In this document: in pieces, positions 57,199-64,000 of the stretch | Layout of the letters: each line of letters opens with the position of its first letter | Position numbering within the stretch: the first letter of the stretch is position 1 | Source: a virus | Length of the DNA: 64,000 bases | Reading direction: 5' to 3' (one strand) | Virus record (IMG/VR): IMGVR_UViG_3300046810_000166 | Coordinates: 29,689-93,688 of that record | Notes under the pieces: model-generated | Told to the model about the DNA's origin: nothing | What the model saw: only the letters and a program-made list of their open reading frames with translations | Databases searched by the model: none | Translations under genes and position numbers: made by a program

Positions 57199-58656
57199 TT
57201 AAAACGGCTGCCAGACTTGCGAGGCCGGCACGATGTTCTTGATGACCACGTGCTGGCGACGCTTGGTGATGCGCAGGTAACCGCAGATCATTTGCAGCCA
57301 CGGATCGATCGGCGAGTTCACGGCGGCCATCGGGATCTTGATCATCGGCATGTACTGCTTCCAGCTGATGGCGTGGTCCGATGCGCGCATGTTCAGCATG
57401 TACGCGGTGGTCGAGCCCGGAATCTCGCGATTCTTGTCCTCGAACACGGTGGTGGCGCCGGTCTTCGGGATGCGGCACATTTCGCGCATATCCGCCAGAT
57501 CGTTGGTGCCGCCGCGCTTCGAGCGGTAGATCACGTAGCCGGTTTCATCGCCGCCCAGCGAGCCGGTGATGGTCAGCGTAACCTTGCCGCCAGCTGCCAC
57601 GGCTGCCTGCGCGGTGACCACCGGGGTCGACTGGCCCGACTTGTTGATCGAGGTGACGGCGTAGAAGAATTGGCCGGCCTGCGGCGCGGTCCATGCCGAA
57701 TCCGAGCCACCCGAGGCCTGCGCGGCGACAGCGACGCCCTGCGGTGCCATGGTGGCCAGCTTGGCCGCGACCTTGGCGTGGGCCTTGTTGCGCAGCTGGA
57801 AGACCTTCTTCATCTTCTCATCGCGGATGAACACGTCCTGATTGGTCTTGATCACGCCGAAGGCGGTCTTGATCGCCGACACGTGCGCGCCGTAGCTGAT
57901 GTCCTTGCCGCTGCCTTCCAGCACGACACGGAAGGCCGGGTCCAGCTTGTTGTTCAGGTCGGTCTGAGCCGAGCCCGACAGGAACAGGTCGGTCGAGGTG
58001 CCGAAGCTCTCGATGCCCCACACGGTTTCAGCGGCTTGGCTGATCGGTGCGATGTTGTCCAGCGGTGCGCCGGCCATATCGATCACGTGGTCGACCGAAT
58101 CCAGCAGCTCGATCTGGCGCTTGATGCCGTTGAACTCGGTCGGCACGACCGCATCGTTACCCTCGAAGGACAGGTACTCGATGTCCGACAGCAGCTGCAG
58201 CGCGCCGTTGGCGGCTTCGACAGCCTTGGCCGACACGATGTTGTTCTGCGCGTTCAGGACCAGCGACACTTTGCGGTAGGTCGACAGGTATTTCACCTGA
58301 CCGACTTGGCGAGCGTAGTCGCCTTCCGCTTCTTCGGCTTCGCCGGCTTCGGTGTTGGTCGAACCACCCAGCACGCCGCCGATGCCGTACTGCTCGGTCC
58401 ATTCATCGACCGTCGCGGTTGCCGAAGGCTTCGGCAGGCGGTTGAACAGCACGAAGTGGCTGTTGTCCTGAATGGTCGCCTGCATGGTGGTGTCCAGCGA
58501 CTGGATGCGCAGCGCGGCGCCGCCTTCCAGACCGGCGGAATCCGAGCCATAGCCCGCTTCCAGCGCTTTGTTGAGAGCGGTCAGCTCGGTCATGCCAAAC
58601 GCGCCGGTGAGCGTTTCCCCTTCGCCCGCGTTCTTGATGATGTTATCGATACTCAT
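57199..58656 (-). CDS. Major capsid protein
   Basis: 485 aa. The features and position (after protease and scaffold) indicate the HK97-fold capsid protein of the long myophage type: YLSTYRKVSLVLNAQNNIVSAKAVEAANGALQLLSDIEYLSFEGNDAVVPTEFNGI is the P-loop/E-loop region. The C-terminus (AISWKQYMPMIKIPMAAVNSPIDPWLQMICGYLRITKRRQHVVI) is the A-domain. Residues about 330-400 (FFYAVTSINKSGQSTPV ... GYVIYRSKRGG) look like an inserted Ig/FnIII domain. Residues about 31-60 share a segment with the protease. Confidence 0.88.
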   Translation of the reverse strand: MSIDNIIKNAGEGETLTGAFGMTELTALNKALEAGYGSDSAGLEGGAALRIQSLDTTMQATIQDNSHFVLFNRLPKPSATATVDEWTEQYGIGGVLGGSTNTEAGEAEEAEGDYARQVGQVKYLSTYRKVSLVLNAQNNIVSAKAVEAANGALQLLSDIEYLSFEGNDAVVPTEFNGIKRQIELLDSVDHVIDMAGAPLDNIAPISQAAETVWGIESFGTSTDLFLSGSAQTDLNNKLDPAFRVVLEGSGKDISYGAHVSAIKTAFGVIKTNQDVFIRDEKMKKVFQLRNKAHAKVAAKLATMAPQGVAVAAQASGGSDSAWTAPQAGQFFYAVTSINKSGQSTPVVTAQAAVAAGGKVTLTITGSLGGDETGYVIYRSKRGGTNDLADMREMCRIPKTGATTVFEDKNREIPGSTTAYMLNMRASDHAISWKQYMPMIKIPMAAVNSPIDPWLQMICGYLRITKRRQHVVIKNIVPASQVWQPF

Positions 58657-58671
58657 TGATTTCCCCGAAGG

Positions 58672-59457
58672 TTAATTGGAAAACACTTTGGCGCGGATGC
58701 TGTCAGGGACAGCCAGACCGCTACCGATTGCAGCCTCGGCCATTGCCACGTCCTGCAGGGACATCTTTCCCTCCTTCTGCAGGGACAGGCACTTGCCGAG
58801 GAATTCTTGAGGCGGCAGACCCTTCTGGTCCGCATCGCCGTTGTTCAGGGACTTCACCATCGGCTCGCCGCCGGTGACGTGGCCCGGATTGGCCACGCTC
58901 TTGCGGCCGGCCGGCTGGTTGCGCAGGGCGTCGATATCCGAGCGCAGGCCGGCGATGGTTTCGCCCTGCGACTGACCCAGCGCCACGGCCTCGCCCAGCG
59001 ACTTGGTCAGGGCTTCGATCTCGCCGCTTTGCTTGCTCAGCAGCATGATGGATTGGCCCAGCAGCTGCTTGACCACGGTTTCGGTACCGTCCAGACGATC
59101 GCCCAGCGCTTTCAGCATTTCGCCGCCGTCGAAGGCTTCGATCTCGTCGCCGTTTTCCAGCGTCAGCGTGATCTTGGCCGGGGCAGCGCCGCCGATGCCG
59201 TCGCCGGCAGCCTGCGACTTGGCCAGCTCGGCAGCTTCTGCGGCAGCAGCTGCAGCGGCCTCCTCGGCTTCCAGCTGCTCGGGCGTCTTGTCGCCGTTGC
59301 CTTCGCCTTCACCTTCGCCAGCGGCGGCAGTGGTGGTCGTGGTCGTGGTCGTAGTGGTCGTGGTGATTGCGCCGTCAGTGCCGTTCTCGGCCGGGGCGCC
59401 CAGACCATGAGCGGCCGCGAGGGTGCCCATGGACTTGATCAAAGCTTCAAAGCTCAT
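58672..59457 (-). CDS. Capsid scaffolding protein
   Basis: 261 aa. It has a run of 12 threonines after residue 30, an Ala/Glu-rich part, a coiled-coil-like centre (MLKALGDRLDGTETVVKQLLGQSIMLL, LTKSLGEAVALGQSQGETIAGL) and a C-terminal LPPQEFLGKCLSLQKEGKMSLQDVAMAEAAIGSG that may bind capsid. Position between protease and capsid genes is classic for a scaffold. The poly-Thr tract is encoded by a repeated ACC/ACG DNA run near 59320-59370 and may vary in length. Confidence 0.78.
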   Translation of the reverse strand: MSFEALIKSMGTLAAAHGLGAPAENGTDGAITTTTTTTTTTTTAAAGEGEGEGNGDKTPEQLEAEEAAAAAAAEAAELAKSQAAGDGIGGAAPAKITLTLENGDEIEAFDGGEMLKALGDRLDGTETVVKQLLGQSIMLLSKQSGEIEALTKSLGEAVALGQSQGETIAGLRSDIDALRNQPAGRKSVANPGHVTGGEPMVKSLNNGDADQKGLPPQEFLGKCLSLQKEGKMSLQDVAMAEAAIGSGLAVPDSIRAKVFSN

Positions 59458-60341
59458 TGGCTTTCCTTTGTTAATGCAAATTGCAGGTCGTTGAGGAATC
59501 GCTGCACGTACCGGGCCGCATGGGCCGCCGGGATGGCGAACAGCTTCTGCGCCGCAGCGACGAATCCCTGCTGCGACATATCGGCCACCGATCCCGTCTG
59601 GATCGCGTTGGCGAATTGGTCACGGAAGTCCCAATAGCTCATCAGCTTGGTGTCGAGCGACTGCACGCGCAGGGCGGCGCCGCCGGTGAGCGATGCGGAG
59701 TCGGTGCCGTAGCCGGCCTCCAAGCCCTTCATCATCGCGCCCCAGCTCTTGGCCAGCGGCCCGAACGCGGTGGTGCCCACCGTGCTCAGGTTGTCGTTGA
59801 CCGGCGTCTTGGAAAATCCGATGTTGGTCCAGCGCACGCCGGTGATCACGGCGGTCTTGTTGCCCCTGCCGTCGAGCTCCACCGCCTTGCCGGTCACCGC
59901 GCCGCCCACCGAGGGATACCAGCGCTCGGGCGGGCTGACCTCGGTAAGCGAGGACCAGAACAGGTCCGCCTTCTGCGCGGCGGCGCCGCTGCCGGCCTTG
60001 ATGTGGCCCTTGACGAAGGTGGTCCCGTTCTCGATGCGCACCGCGACCGGCACGCCGATCTCGTAGGCCATGTAGTCGGGGATGCCCCGCTTGGCGCCGA
60101 TCTGCGTGTAGTGGTCAATATCGAGGTTGCCGAACTTGAGGTAGTAGTCGGCCGAGTTGGCCAGCGCCTGCGCCAGCACCTTCTCGCCCTGCTGATCCTT
60201 CGCCTCGTTGCTGGCCTCGATATACACGAAGCGCTCAGCCCCTTCCGTGGCGGGCGTTGCCTTGAGCATCTGGCCGCCCACCGCGAGGTGAACGGGCAGC
60301 GTGTCGAGCAGCAAAATATCGTTGTCGTGGCCGGTGTCCAT
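59454..60341 (-). CDS. Prohead (capsid maturation) protease
   Basis: 295 aa. GNLDIDHYTQIG carries the catalytic His and SSLTEVSPPERWYPSVGG the nucleophile Ser, the layout of herpesvirus/HK97-type prohead proteases. C-terminal residues about 207-236 (LEAGYGTDSASLTGGAALRVQSLD) are nearly the same as residues 31-60 of the capsid protein. ATG 60341 has AAGG upstream and lies eight bases after a late promoter hexamer; longer frames upstream cross a terminator and are rejected. Confidence 0.85.
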   Translation of the reverse strand: MDTGHDNDILLLDTLPVHLAVGGQMLKATPATEGAERFVYIEASNEAKDQQGEKVLAQALANSADYYLKFGNLDIDHYTQIGAKRGIPDYMAYEIGVPVAVRIENGTTFVKGHIKAGSGAAAQKADLFWSSLTEVSPPERWYPSVGGAVTGKAVELDGRGNKTAVITGVRWTNIGFSKTPVNDNLSTVGTTAFGPLAKSWGAMMKGLEAGYGTDSASLTGGAALRVQSLDTKLMSYWDFRDQFANAIQTGSVADMSQQGFVAAAQKLFAIPAAHAARYVQRFLNDLQFALTKESQ

Positions 60342-60453: not shown

Positions 60454-61023
60454 TCACTGTCGGGGCCGCCAGAATAGGGTCAGGGACTTGATCATTCCGG
60501 GGTGGGTACGGGTCCGTTTGACCTTGCGCACGAATTCGGCCACCGGCATGGCCACGATGCCGCCGAAGAAGCGCGGGTCGTTGTAGTGTTCGAGGTAGGC
60601 GGCCTCGGCGGCATCCTGCGAGGGGAAGTCGATCATGACCTTGTCCTCGTCGTAGGCGCTCCAGTCATTGCGGCGCATCTGGCGCACGATGTAGACCTGC
60701 TCGGCGTCGGCATAGGGCCCGATGTACACGTCGACCGGGTCGCCATCGGCGCCGCAGGTGGCCTCGATCTCGCCATACGCATAGCGGAACTCGGTGCGCC
60801 ATGGCGCGCCGCCTTCATCCACGCCCTCGCGTACGGTGCCCACCGGGTTCTCGATGTTCACCTGCAGGCCCTGCCAGTCCATGCGCGGCTTGTAGTAGTC
60901 GCCGGTCTTGGCCAGCTCGGGCGGCGGCTGGCTCCACTTCGGGTCGGTGGTGGCTTCGAGCGCGCGCTTGGCCGAGTCGAGCAGCAGCTGCTGCGGGATG
61001 GCCTTGAGGAGCAGGATGGTCAT
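60454..61023 (-). CDS. Inorganic-pyrophosphatase-like (InPase) phage protein
   Basis: 189 aa from ATG 61023 (ATGA overlap). ENPVGTVREGVDEGGAPWRTEFRYAYGEIEATCGADGDPVDVYIGPYADAEQVYIV is the phage InPase-type domain (core 'enP.G..R.G.......m...YGyi..t.GaDGd.vDv.iGp'). DEDKVMIDFPSQDAAEAAYLEHYND completes it. In other phages this domain is part of large 'polyvalent' proteins injected with the genome. Here it is next to the MuF-like gene, so it may be packaged. Activity is unproven. Confidence 0.75.
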   Translation of the reverse strand: MTILLLKAIPQQLLLDSAKRALEATTDPKWSQPPPELAKTGDYYKPRMDWQGLQVNIENPVGTVREGVDEGGAPWRTEFRYAYGEIEATCGADGDPVDVYIGPYADAEQVYIVRQMRRNDWSAYDEDKVMIDFPSQDAAEAAYLEHYNDPRFFGGIVAMPVAEFVRKVKRTRTHPGMIKSLTLFWRPRQ

Positions 61024-62219
61024 GACTGTGCCTTGTTGCCCTTGGTGGGCGAGGTGCGGTGCTTGTGGAAGTGCTGGTCGAGCCACTTCTGGAAGTCGGG
61101 GTCGTCGTGCGGGCCGGCCTCGGGCAGCGTGTCCCACGTGCCCCGGCAGTGCGGGTGCACGGTACCGGCCGGAATCCACCACATTTCGGACGGCATGCGC
61201 TCGACCAGCTCATTCCCCACGCGCTTGCGGCCGGCGCTGGAGCGGCCGATGTTGTTCTTGCCCGGCCAGACCTGCGTGTCGCCGTCCTTGTCCGGGGCGT
61301 CCGCCGGCACCACTTCCATGGTGACGCCGTCGATGCGCTTGCAGAAGGGGCAGGCGCCCTTGTACTGCTCGATGCGCTTGACGCGCGAGCCGGGCGTCAG
61401 GGAGGCCAGAAAGCCCTGATTGGCGTTCTCCCCGGCCTCGGTGAGGGCGATGCGGCGCCAGTCGCGGTTCAGGGCGGCGAATTCATCGAACAGCTTCTGC
61501 TGCAGGTTTTCGCGGCTGGCCACCGGGTCGCCCTGCGCCTTGTCGAACGTGTGCTGCAGGATGACTTTCTTGACCCGCTGGCGCGCCGACGCGGTCAGCG
61601 CCACCACCTGCTCCATGCACCGGGCCTGCCCGAATTCCATGATGGCGTCCAGCTTGGTGAACTTGAACGCCTGCTGCGCGGCCGCGACCGTGACCGGCAG
61701 GGCCGCCACGACCGGGTCGAGCTCGGGCACGGTCGGCGCCTGCCCGTTCATCACCGCCTGCACCCGGCCGAGGATCGAGGCGCGCACCGCGAACCACTCG
61801 GCCTCGGTGCGCAGCACGGCCTCGGGCATGTAGGAGTGCAGCAGGTAGTCGACCACCAGTGACCAGTCCGAGAACGTGAACGCCTCCACCGGCAGGCTGG
61901 TGAGGTACAGGTGCGCCAGCGCCGACTCCTCGGCCGTCCAGTTCTCCACGAAGCCGGGCTTGGCCACGTGCTTGGCGGCCGGGTCGTGCATCTTGCCATC
62001 GGCCCACGCCATCAGGCCATGCTGCACGTGCTGCAGCATGGTCAGGCCGCGCGCGGTGAACAGCTCGATGATGCGGGCGATGAACGGGCTCTGGTGCGGC
62101 TCCCAAATGTCATGCGCGTCGCCATCCTCGCCCGAAATGGCCTTGGCCAGCCCTTCCAGCGCGTGGTCCGTGCAGCAGGCCGACAGGCCGCCGAGGTCGA
62201 CCAGCAGCGGCGTGCTCAT
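61020..62219 (-). CDS. MuF-like minor head protein
   Basis: 399 aa. The C-terminal half has RVKRIEQYKGACPFCKRIDGVTMEVV and GTVHPHCRGTWDTLPE, the Cys/His signature of Mu gpF-like head morphogenesis proteins. The N-terminal half is helical (DAIMEFGQARCMEQVVALTASARQRVKKVILQHTF). It lies directly after the portal region as expected. Usually a minor capsid component bound near the portal. Confidence 0.75.
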   Translation of the reverse strand: MSTPLLVDLGGLSACCTDHALEGLAKAISGEDGDAHDIWEPHQSPFIARIIELFTARGLTMLQHVQHGLMAWADGKMHDPAAKHVAKPGFVENWTAEESALAHLYLTSLPVEAFTFSDWSLVVDYLLHSYMPEAVLRTEAEWFAVRASILGRVQAVMNGQAPTVPELDPVVAALPVTVAAAQQAFKFTKLDAIMEFGQARCMEQVVALTASARQRVKKVILQHTFDKAQGDPVASRENLQQKLFDEFAALNRDWRRIALTEAGENANQGFLASLTPGSRVKRIEQYKGACPFCKRIDGVTMEVVPADAPDKDGDTQVWPGKNNIGRSSAGRKRVGNELVERMPSEMWWIPAGTVHPHCRGTWDTLPEAGPHDDPDFQKWLDQHFHKHRTSPTKGNKAQS

Positions 62220-62443: not shown

Positions 62444-62805
62444 TTCTTCCCTTCCTTCTTCTTGCCCGGCTGGTGGCCGGTGACTTCGTGCCAGTGCACC
62501 CGGTGCTCGCGCCCGGTGTCGTCCTTCACGGTGGGGCCGTGCTCGCCGGCGGCGATCACTTCGCCCGAGCCGGCGAAGGCGCCGGCGTTGAAGGCCACGG
62601 TGTCGCCCTCGCCCACGTTGTGCTTGCCGAATTCGCCGCCGGCGGCGCACTGCTTGAGCAGCGCCAGCAGGCCCACGAAATTCGGGCTGGCCAGATCCAC
62701 CTGCTTCGGGTCCGGCTTGGAGGTAGGTTTGGCTGACGGCGCGGCCTTGGCGGCCGGCTTCTTCTTGTCGCCGGGCTTGGGCAGCGCCTTGAACAGCATC
62801 TTCAT
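62440..62805 (-). CDS. SH3/KOW-like domain protein next to portal
   Basis: 121 aa from ATG 62805 (ATGA overlap). A Lys/Ala/Pro-rich N-terminus is followed by VGEGDTVAFNAGAFAGSGEVIAAGEHGPTVKDDTGREHRVHWHEVTGH, an SH3-like barrel found in portal-adjacent phage proteins, and a Lys-rich tail. It could bind DNA or the portal. Function unknown. Confidence 0.6.
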   Translation of the reverse strand: MKMLFKALPKPGDKKKPAAKAAPSAKPTSKPDPKQVDLASPNFVGLLALLKQCAAGGEFGKHNVGEGDTVAFNAGAFAGSGEVIAAGEHGPTVKDDTGREHRVHWHEVTGHQPGKKKEGKK

Positions 62806-64000
62806 GGCATCAGATCCTTGGGCTGGTAGATCGGGAGGTTGAACGACTTGCCGAAGTCGAAGTCGCCGCCGGTTTCGGTGGGCGGGGCGCTGGTGACGGG
62901 CTCCTTGCCCTTCTTGGCGGCGCCTGCAGGCTTGTCCTCGCCGCCCTTGGGGCCATCCTCGCCATCCTCGCCCTCGGCGCCCTGCTGGGCCTCCTGCGGC
63001 GTCAGCACGCCCTGCTCCTGCAGGCTGGCCATGTACACCTGCATCAGGGCCGGGTTGACCGGGGCCTTGCCGATAATCGGGTCTTCGTGCTCGGGCTGGC
63101 CGTCGCGCGCGCGCATTTCGTTGACCGTCATGGTCAGCTTGCTGCGTTCGTGGCGCTTGTCCAGATCCTCGGGGTCCAGCCCGGTGAAGCGGAACACCAG
63201 ATCGGGCGAGAATTCGCCGACGATGAAGTCCGTGATCAGGTTCTGGAAGTAGGTCAGCAGCGGACGCAGGCCCGAGTCCTTCGACGCGGTCAGCTTCTCC
63301 TCGGTGTCCGAGCCGGCCAGCGGGCTGGTGTTGCCGCCGCTGAACGAGTCGAAATTGATCTCGGCCGGGCTGATGCCGTAGATGGCGCAGATCAGCGAAG
63401 TGAGGAAGGTCATCCACTTGCTGAAATACATTTCATTAAATTCAACGTCGAACTTCTCGAAGCTGGCCTTGGAGTGCTCGTCCGGCGAGGTCATGATCGG
63501 CAGCGTCCACGCATTGTTCACGCCGCGCACCATGGCGTTCCAGTAGCGGCGGAAGGCGGCCAGATCCTTGTCGTCGTACTTGCCGACGAGGTGGAGCATG
63601 CCCTTCGGGATCGCGTTGGAGTCGAAGCCCTTGATGTTGTACGTCATGGCGTTCAGGTAGCCAGTGACGGTCTTGACCAGCAGCTCGACCTCGGAATGGC
63701 CATAGCCGGCCACCAGCACGTTCGAGCGCGGGTTGCGCGGCTCATAGATCAGGTCATCGTGGGTGTAGGGCGTGCAGATCCGGCCCTGCACCACCTGCAG
63801 CGCGAAGATATCCGGGTTGCCTTGGTAGCCCTTGTCGGTGCACAGGCGGACGGTGGCGCCGTCGACGGCGTAGAAGCCAGACACGCCCAGCCCCTTGTCC
63901 TTTTTCCACTCCAGCTCGATCGCGGCCGAGTCCATCGACAGCGAGTCGCGGGTCAGCTTGCCCATGAACTGCGAGAAGGCGTCGCGGCCCAGCTTCTTGC
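62802..64000 (-). CDS. Portal protein, 5' end beyond the window
   Basis: About 398 aa visible; the frame stays open to the right edge (KKLGRDAFSQFMGKLTRD), so the start is outside. VELLVKTVTGYLNAMTYNIKGFDSNAIPKGMLHLVGKYDDKDLAAFRRYWNAMVRG, SFEKFDVEFNEMYFSKWMTFLTSLICAIYGISPAEINFDSFSGGNTS and FQNLITDFIVGEFSPDLVFRFTGLDPEDL are the clip, wing and stem features of portals. The tail is acidic and Lys/Gly-rich. Large terminase is expected just upstream, beyond the window. Confidence 0.88.
   Translation of the reverse strand, partial: KKLGRDAFSQFMGKLTRDSLSMDSAAIELEWKKDKGLGVSGFYAVDGATVRLCTDKGYQGNPDIFALQVVQGRICTPYTHDDLIYEPRNPRSNVLVAGYGHSEVELLVKTVTGYLNAMTYNIKGFDSNAIPKGMLHLVGKYDDKDLAAFRRYWNAMVRGVNNAWTLPIMTSPDEHSKASFEKFDVEFNEMYFSKWMTFLTSLICAIYGISPAEINFDSFSGGNTSPLAGSDTEEKLTASKDSGLRPLLTYFQNLITDFIVGEFSPDLVFRFTGLDPEDLDKRHERSKLTMTVNEMRARDGQPEHEDPIIGKAPVNPALMQVYMASLQEQGVLTPQEAQQGAEGEDGEDGPKGGEDKPAGAAKKGKEPVTSAPPTETGGDFDFGKSFNLPIYQPKDLMP

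What the first reader, a model, noticed from the sequence alone, without database searches (positions are those of the whole stretch)
57199..60341. Capsid protein and maturation protease share a 24-residue segment
Capsid residues about 31-54 (LEAGYGSDSAGLEGGAALRI, then QSLD) and protease residues about 207-230 (LEAGYGTDSASLTGGAALRV, then QSLD) differ at few positions, while the rest of the two proteins is unrelated. It could be a common cleavage or docking signal so that the protease is incorporated into the prohead and cuts itself and the capsid at the same motif.
Basis: partly seen in the sequence, partly recalled or inferred. Interest (0 to 1): 0.68.

Follow-up and report, generated by a model that had tools for sequence, protein, structure and literature searches.

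The report
Phage protease carries copied capsid arm
In this phage and its relatives, the enzyme that trims the immature head carries near its end a copy of the first stretch of the mature shell protein, starting at the predicted cut site shared by both proteins, and the two copies change together in evolution, which suggests how the enzyme is brought into the head and then cut loose.

Summary
Capsid protein (MCP) residues 32-55 and protease residues 207-230 share 19 of 24 residues (local E=4e-11); the rest is unrelated. 36 of 38 genomes checked have the pair: ~90-kb Gram-negative phages, Herelleviridae (SPO1, Sb-1, Listeria, Enterococcus, Lactobacillus phages) and Thermus phage Cumys. Thermus Lalka27b has only a trace; Bacteroides DAC16 lacks it. 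Within a genome the copies co-vary (AG/AS, ALR/ALG, QSL/ESL, Cumys TAGDPHALD, LP65 AANR): partial r 0.53, against at most 0.27 for control windows. Synonymous sites show no general recent copying. The segment starts at a lysine. Scaffold proteins are packed with the same core, hydrophobic-x-K|[S/A/G]-hydrophobic (156 observed, 8.9 expected), and a deposited Kayvirus-type MCP chain starts exactly there. So the core looks like the cleavage site, shared by scaffold, MCP and protease. The longer segment, which the scaffold lacks, is the first 25-45 residues of the mature capsid arm. Best reading: the protease's C-terminal propeptide carries a capsid-arm mimic that docks it in the prohead, and the same cut frees capsid and enzyme. 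Sequence facts are shown; capsid cleavage is well supported; self-cleavage and docking are inferred.

The parts
57199..58656 (-). Major capsid protein (MCP), 485 aa, SPO1 gp6.1 / HK97-type
   Evidence: phrog_752 E=4e-84; PDB 9vel Gp6.1 E=4e-32, 5lii, 9row
58567..58656 (-). Predicted MCP N-terminal propeptide, residues 1-30, ending at K30 (cut predicted K30|A31)
   Evidence: Only hydrophobic-x-K-[SAG]-hydrophobic site in this MCP; Kayvirus-type MCP chain 9row starts at the equivalent residue
58492..58563 (-). Shared segment in MCP, residues 32-55 (LEAGYGSDSAGLEGGAALRIQSLD)
58672..59457 (-). Scaffold protein, 261 aa, with predicted cut sites after K8, K116, K152 and K202; lacks the extended segment
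   Evidence: Position between protease and MCP; profile match of the Gram-negative scaffold C-termini to SPO1-type scaffolds, probability 96%; sites
59454..60341 (-). Prohead protease, 295 aa
   Evidence: phrog_1028 E=5e-30; Foldseek best match T4 gp21 5jbl, E=7e-5, probability 1.00
59808..60341 (-). Protease catalytic domain, residues 1-178 (invariant H77 and S144 are likely catalytic)
   Evidence: AlphaFold2 model; invariant columns; catalytic roles inferred
59727..59750 (-). Protease linker with two predicted self-cleavage sites, K198|S199 (LAKSW) and K205|G206 (MMKGL)
   Evidence: Motif scan; conserved in relatives
59652..59723 (-). Shared segment in the protease, residues 207-230 (LEAGYGTDSASLTGGAALRVQSLD); modelled as disordered
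59460..59636 (-). C-terminal small helical domain of the protease, residues 236-294
   Evidence: AlphaFold2, pLDDT about 82-86 over most of it

Best explanation
The protease is made as [catalytic domain]-[linker with K|S/A/G cut sites]-[copy of the mature capsid N-arm]-[small helical domain]. The C-terminal ~90 residues are a propeptide. Its N-arm copy binds what the MCP N-arm binds in the prohead (neighbouring MCP subunits, or the scaffold), which brings the enzyme into the assembling head. On maturation the enzyme cuts hydrophobic-x-K|[S/A/G]-hydrophobic sites: many in the scaffold, one in the MCP exactly at the start of the N-arm, and its own linker just before the N-arm copy. One reaction thus trims the shell, destroys the scaffold and frees the catalytic domain from its anchor. 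Shown: the segment, its conservation and position, the co-variation, and the enrichment of the cut core in scaffolds. Well supported: cutting of the MCP at the start of the segment. Inferred: self-cutting of the protease, and the docking role.
For: 36 of 38 genomes have the pair, MCP copy near the N-terminus and protease copy about 80-130 residues from the C-terminus. Own-pair identity 0.69 against 0.54 for foreign pairs; partial Mantel r=0.52, p=0.0002; r=0.53 with 33 genomes, 125 control windows reach at most 0.27. Between distant phages own pairs (0.64) are more alike than orthologues (0.42-0.44). Codons at identical residues agree only as codon usage predicts, so protein-level selection. 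Cut core: 156 vs 8.9 expected in scaffolds; KS the top dipeptide. Kayvirus-type MCP chain 9row begins right after the lysine. The stretch extends to about 45-55 residues in Herelleviridae, far beyond an active-site peptide. Segment modelled as a disordered linker. SPN3US gp245 removes its own C-terminal propeptide at the same motif as its substrates (PMC10052503).
Against: No binding or cleavage data. The binding partner was not found: no other window in MCP or protease co-varies strongly, and the scaffold lead is weak (0.34-0.36, its own divergence not controlled). DAC16 lacks and Lalka27b nearly lacks the copy. A few proteases have no lysine at the expected place (Mecenats66, LfeInf). Phylogenetic dependence is controlled only partly.
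Confidence: 0.5

Rival explanations
1. Exosite and self-inhibition: the protease recognises the MCP at an extended surface through the 24 or more residues after the cut, and its own copy occupies that surface in cis, keeping it inactive until assembly. The two copies match because both fit one groove on the enzyme.
For: Explains co-variation of the two copies and why only these two proteins carry the long segment. Proteolysis of prohead proteins must be delayed until assembly (general knowledge).
Against: No catalytic-domain window co-varies with either copy (maximum 0.19). Scaffold sites apparently need only the short core. The model shows no docking of the segment on the catalytic domain (pLDDT about 25), though a shallow alignment could miss it.
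Confidence: 0.25
2. Only a shared cleavage site: the segment is simply the recognition sequence of the protease, in its capsid substrate and in itself.
For: The segment starts at the predicted scissile lysine in nearly all copies, and the core is shared with the scaffolds.
Against: Scaffold sites lack the remaining 20 or more residues, yet the distal part GG-A-L-R-x-[QE]-S-L is the most conserved. In Herelleviridae the likeness runs about 45-55 residues.
Confidence: 0.15
3. Recent copying between the neighbouring genes (gene conversion or duplication) without function for the likeness.
For: The genes are close together. L034 and L037 use the same codon more often than expected (16 vs 7.5; 18 vs 12.8).
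Against: Overall same-codon use is at chance (251 vs 240, z=1), and in the window 11 vs 11.7. Conversion confined to exactly this stretch in many lineages would itself need selection.
Confidence: 0.05

Closest known systems
Head module of SPO1 and other Herelleviridae (protease gp3.2, scaffold gp3.3, MCP gp6.1)
   Same: Same gene order, homologous MCP, protease and scaffold, and the same shared segment.
   Different: The window belongs to a separate lineage of ~90-kb phages whose named members infect Gram-negative hosts; in Herelleviridae the likeness extends further. No description of the shared segment was found.
T4 prohead protease gp21 with MCP gp23 and scaffold gp22
   Same: Same fold by Foldseek (5jbl, E=7e-5); protease-scaffold-MCP gene order; motif of the form hydrophobic-x-charged| (L/I-x-E, PMC9026906); targeting by gp21 propeptides proposed there.
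   Different: Lys rather than Glu before the cut (predicted); gp21 and gp23 share no comparable segment.
SPN3US gp245 / phiKZ gp175 giant-phage prohead proteases
   Same: Self-cleavage removes a C-terminal propeptide (64 residues in gp245) at the motif used on the MCP; Ser preferred after the cut (PMC10052503).
   Different: Motif A-x-E. Whether these propeptides resemble the capsid arm was not tested here.
T4 capsid targeting sequence (CTS) of internal proteins
   Same: A removable peptide that brings a protein into the prohead and is cut off by the prohead protease (PMC9026906): same logic.
   Different: CTS is N-terminal and about 10 residues; here it would be C-terminal and a copy of the shell protein's arm.

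Membership tests
T4 gp21-type / herpes-type prohead serine protease | gp21 fold | tested here: met
   Foldseek: 5jbl chains are the only matches below 0.001, E=7e-5, probability 1.00; TM-score modest, 0.48-0.51 on the target
T4 gp21-type / herpes-type prohead serine protease | Conserved catalytic His and Ser | tested here: inconclusive
   H77 and S144 invariant in 15 relatives; not mapped residue by residue onto gp21
T4 gp21-type / herpes-type prohead serine protease | Cleavage after hydrophobic-x-Glu as in T4 | tested here: not met
   The enriched core has Lys, not Glu, at P1; prediction from sequence. Specificity differs between members, so it does not exclude the fold family
T4 gp21-type / herpes-type prohead serine protease | Self-cleavage of a terminal propeptide | not testable with these tools
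   Two predicted sites in the linker, K198 and K205; needs an experiment
SPO1-type head module | Homologous MCP, and protease-scaffold-MCP gene order | tested here: met
   MCP to Gp6.1 E=4e-32; gene order as in SPO1; scaffold C-terminus profile match
SPO1-type head module | MCP processed right before the shared segment | tested here: inconclusive
   Chain start of 9row and a tryptic phage K peptide agree; no data for this phage
Capsid targeting sequence (T4 CTS) | Short N-terminal peptide sufficient for encapsidation | tested here: not met
   The segment is C-terminal in the protease and resembles the shell protein; works-like only

The most novel reading that the evidence does not exclude
Prohead proteases of Herelleviridae and their Gram-negative relatives enter the head by molecular mimicry: a C-terminal copy of the mature capsid N-arm takes an N-arm place in the prohead lattice, with a co-evolving cut site in both proteins, so that shell trimming and enzyme release are one switch.
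Probability: 0.4. Interest if true: 0.78.

Novelty: new variant of a known kind. Interest (0 to 1): 0.63.

Why it matters
How prohead proteases are brought into heads and why they cut off their own ends is described as a major gap even in T4 (PMC9026906). A capsid-arm copy in the protease tail, conserved from a Kayvirus (Sb-1) and SPO1 to environmental Gram-negative-type phages and co-varying with the capsid, gives a concrete, directly testable answer for a phage group used in therapy. It also predicts a Lys-specific cleavage motif for annotating mature head proteins across Herelleviridae.

Tried and rejected
Gene conversion as the general cause: rejected by codon use. Scaffold carrying the extended segment: no. 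Homology of the protease's helical tail with the scaffold C-terminus: none by profile comparison. Homology of the protease tail with the MCP beyond the shared stretch: none. Same feature in T4: no. MCP structure model failed (pLDDT 42), so the arm could not be placed. Literature: no paper in the open-access library was found that describes the shared segment; subscription papers on A511, phage K and SPO1 were not available, so a prior mention cannot be excluded. A tree-based count of joint changes (77 vs 42 expected; 30 to the same residue vs 3.4) agrees, but its column-shuffle null ignores column-specific rates, so I rely on the window control instead. In L035 and L036 the scaffold ORF was picked in the wrong frame; they were left out of the scaffold counts. 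The EF24C protease was read only from an internal Met.

Full report
Observation. The genes are on the minus strand: protease 59454-60341, scaffold 58672-59457, MCP 57199-58656. MCP residues 32-55 and protease residues 207-230 match at 19 of 24 positions, with further matches around them; BLASTP E=4e-11, and nothing else in the two proteins matches. A segment profile run over the whole 93.7-kb contig finds only these two places.

Relatives. The MCP has 486 relatives among phage records and the protease 33; a Herelleviridae protease finds 611. I extracted MCP, protease and scaffold from named phages and IMG/VR contigs. In 36 of the 38 genomes compared (a few are near-identical contigs), own MCP and own protease share this stretch, E from 2e-14 to 0.002. 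Lalka27b shows a weak trace (E=4e-5, shuffle p=0.0005) and Bacteroides DAC16 none, although both keep a lysine core. In MCPs the stretch lies near the N-terminus, in proteases about 80-130 residues from the C-terminus. LfeInf has a rearranged gene order (MCP before protease) but keeps both copies. In T4, gp21 and gp23 share nothing of the kind.

Cut site. The stretch starts at a lysine found in nearly all copies (27 of 28 MCPs, 24 of 28 proteases). The Kayvirus-type MCP is deposited as 463 aa (5lii) and, in 9row/9rox/9roz, as a 439-aa chain beginning at S25, the residue after that lysine. Phage K virions contain the tryptic peptide SFQTGYGITPDTQIDAGALR (PMC5258805), which agrees but cannot prove it, since trypsin also cuts after lysine. 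In the scaffolds KS is the most over-represented dipeptide (208 vs 60.6), with L/M/V enriched two before K; hydrophobic-x-K-[SAG]-hydrophobic occurs 156 times against 8.9 expected, at chance in the MCP outside the segment (10 vs 10.9), and 36 vs 5.4 in the protease upstream of its last 120 residues. In the window the MCP has one such site, K30, and the protease two, K198 and K205, both in the linker. I take this as the cleavage motif; it was not assayed. It resembles the T4 motif L/I-x-E| (PMC9026906) with Lys for Glu.

More than a cut site. The scaffold does not have the longer stretch. In Herelleviridae the likeness runs about 45-55 residues, in the Gram-negative group 31. It therefore covers the first part of the mature MCP, the N-terminal arm of an HK97-type capsid protein (arm assignment from general knowledge).

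Co-variation. Across 28 genomes, own-pair identity is 0.69 against 0.54 for foreign pairs; a partial Mantel test controlling for MCP and protease bodies gives r=0.52, p=0.0002. With 33 genomes r=0.53; 125 control windows elsewhere in the two proteins reach at most 0.27. Between distant phages (<25% MCP-body identity), own pairs are 64% alike but orthologous segments only 42-44%. If the likeness were an old duplication drifting freely, own pairs should not be more alike than orthologues. Examples: AS in both proteins of six phages with ALG-type endings; TAGDPHALD in both proteins of Cumys; AANR in both of LP65. Codons at identical residues agree no more than codon usage predicts, 251 vs 240, so selection on the protein, not general recent copying, keeps them alike; L034 and L037 may be exceptions.

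Architecture. AlphaFold2 gives a catalytic domain (1-178), a linker with the segment at very low confidence (180-233, pLDDT about 25) and a confident small helical domain (236-294). Foldseek puts T4 gp21 first. [quoted passage not shown] This phage group fits that scheme and adds what the propeptide looks like: the capsid's own arm.

Verdict. The shared cut core is well supported; docking by mimicry of the capsid arm is the most likely role of the rest (about 0.5), with an exosite or self-inhibition role the main rival (0.25).

Noticed in passing
window 60454-61131(-), 61020-62219(-), 62802-63965(-): Neighbouring head genes also carry the predicted cut core near their ends: K43 and K215 in the InPase-domain protein, K26 in the 399-aa protein, and the site at 373 near the C-terminus of the portal; they may be processed too.
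   Followed up: partly
window 60454-61131(-): A Pfam InPase domain (PF18823, E=2e-39) sits just upstream of the protease; elsewhere it occurs in very large phage polyvalent or structural proteins.
   Followed up: no
window MCP residues ~300-410: The MCP has a confidently modelled beta-sandwich insertion (pLDDT about 80-90) that weakly matches FN3 monobodies in sequence: an Ig-like capsid domain.
   Followed up: no
L034 and L037, protease and MCP segments: Same-codon use above expectation (16 vs 7.5, 18 vs 12.8), possibly recent gene conversion in these lineages.
   Followed up: no
window scaffold residues ~93-136: A scaffold stretch co-varies weakly with both segments (partial r about 0.31-0.36, scaffold divergence not controlled): a possible docking partner.
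   Followed up: no
window 62802-63965(-): The portal gene looks cut by the contig end: the profile match starts at position 150, and the window ends where the contig ends.
   Followed up: no
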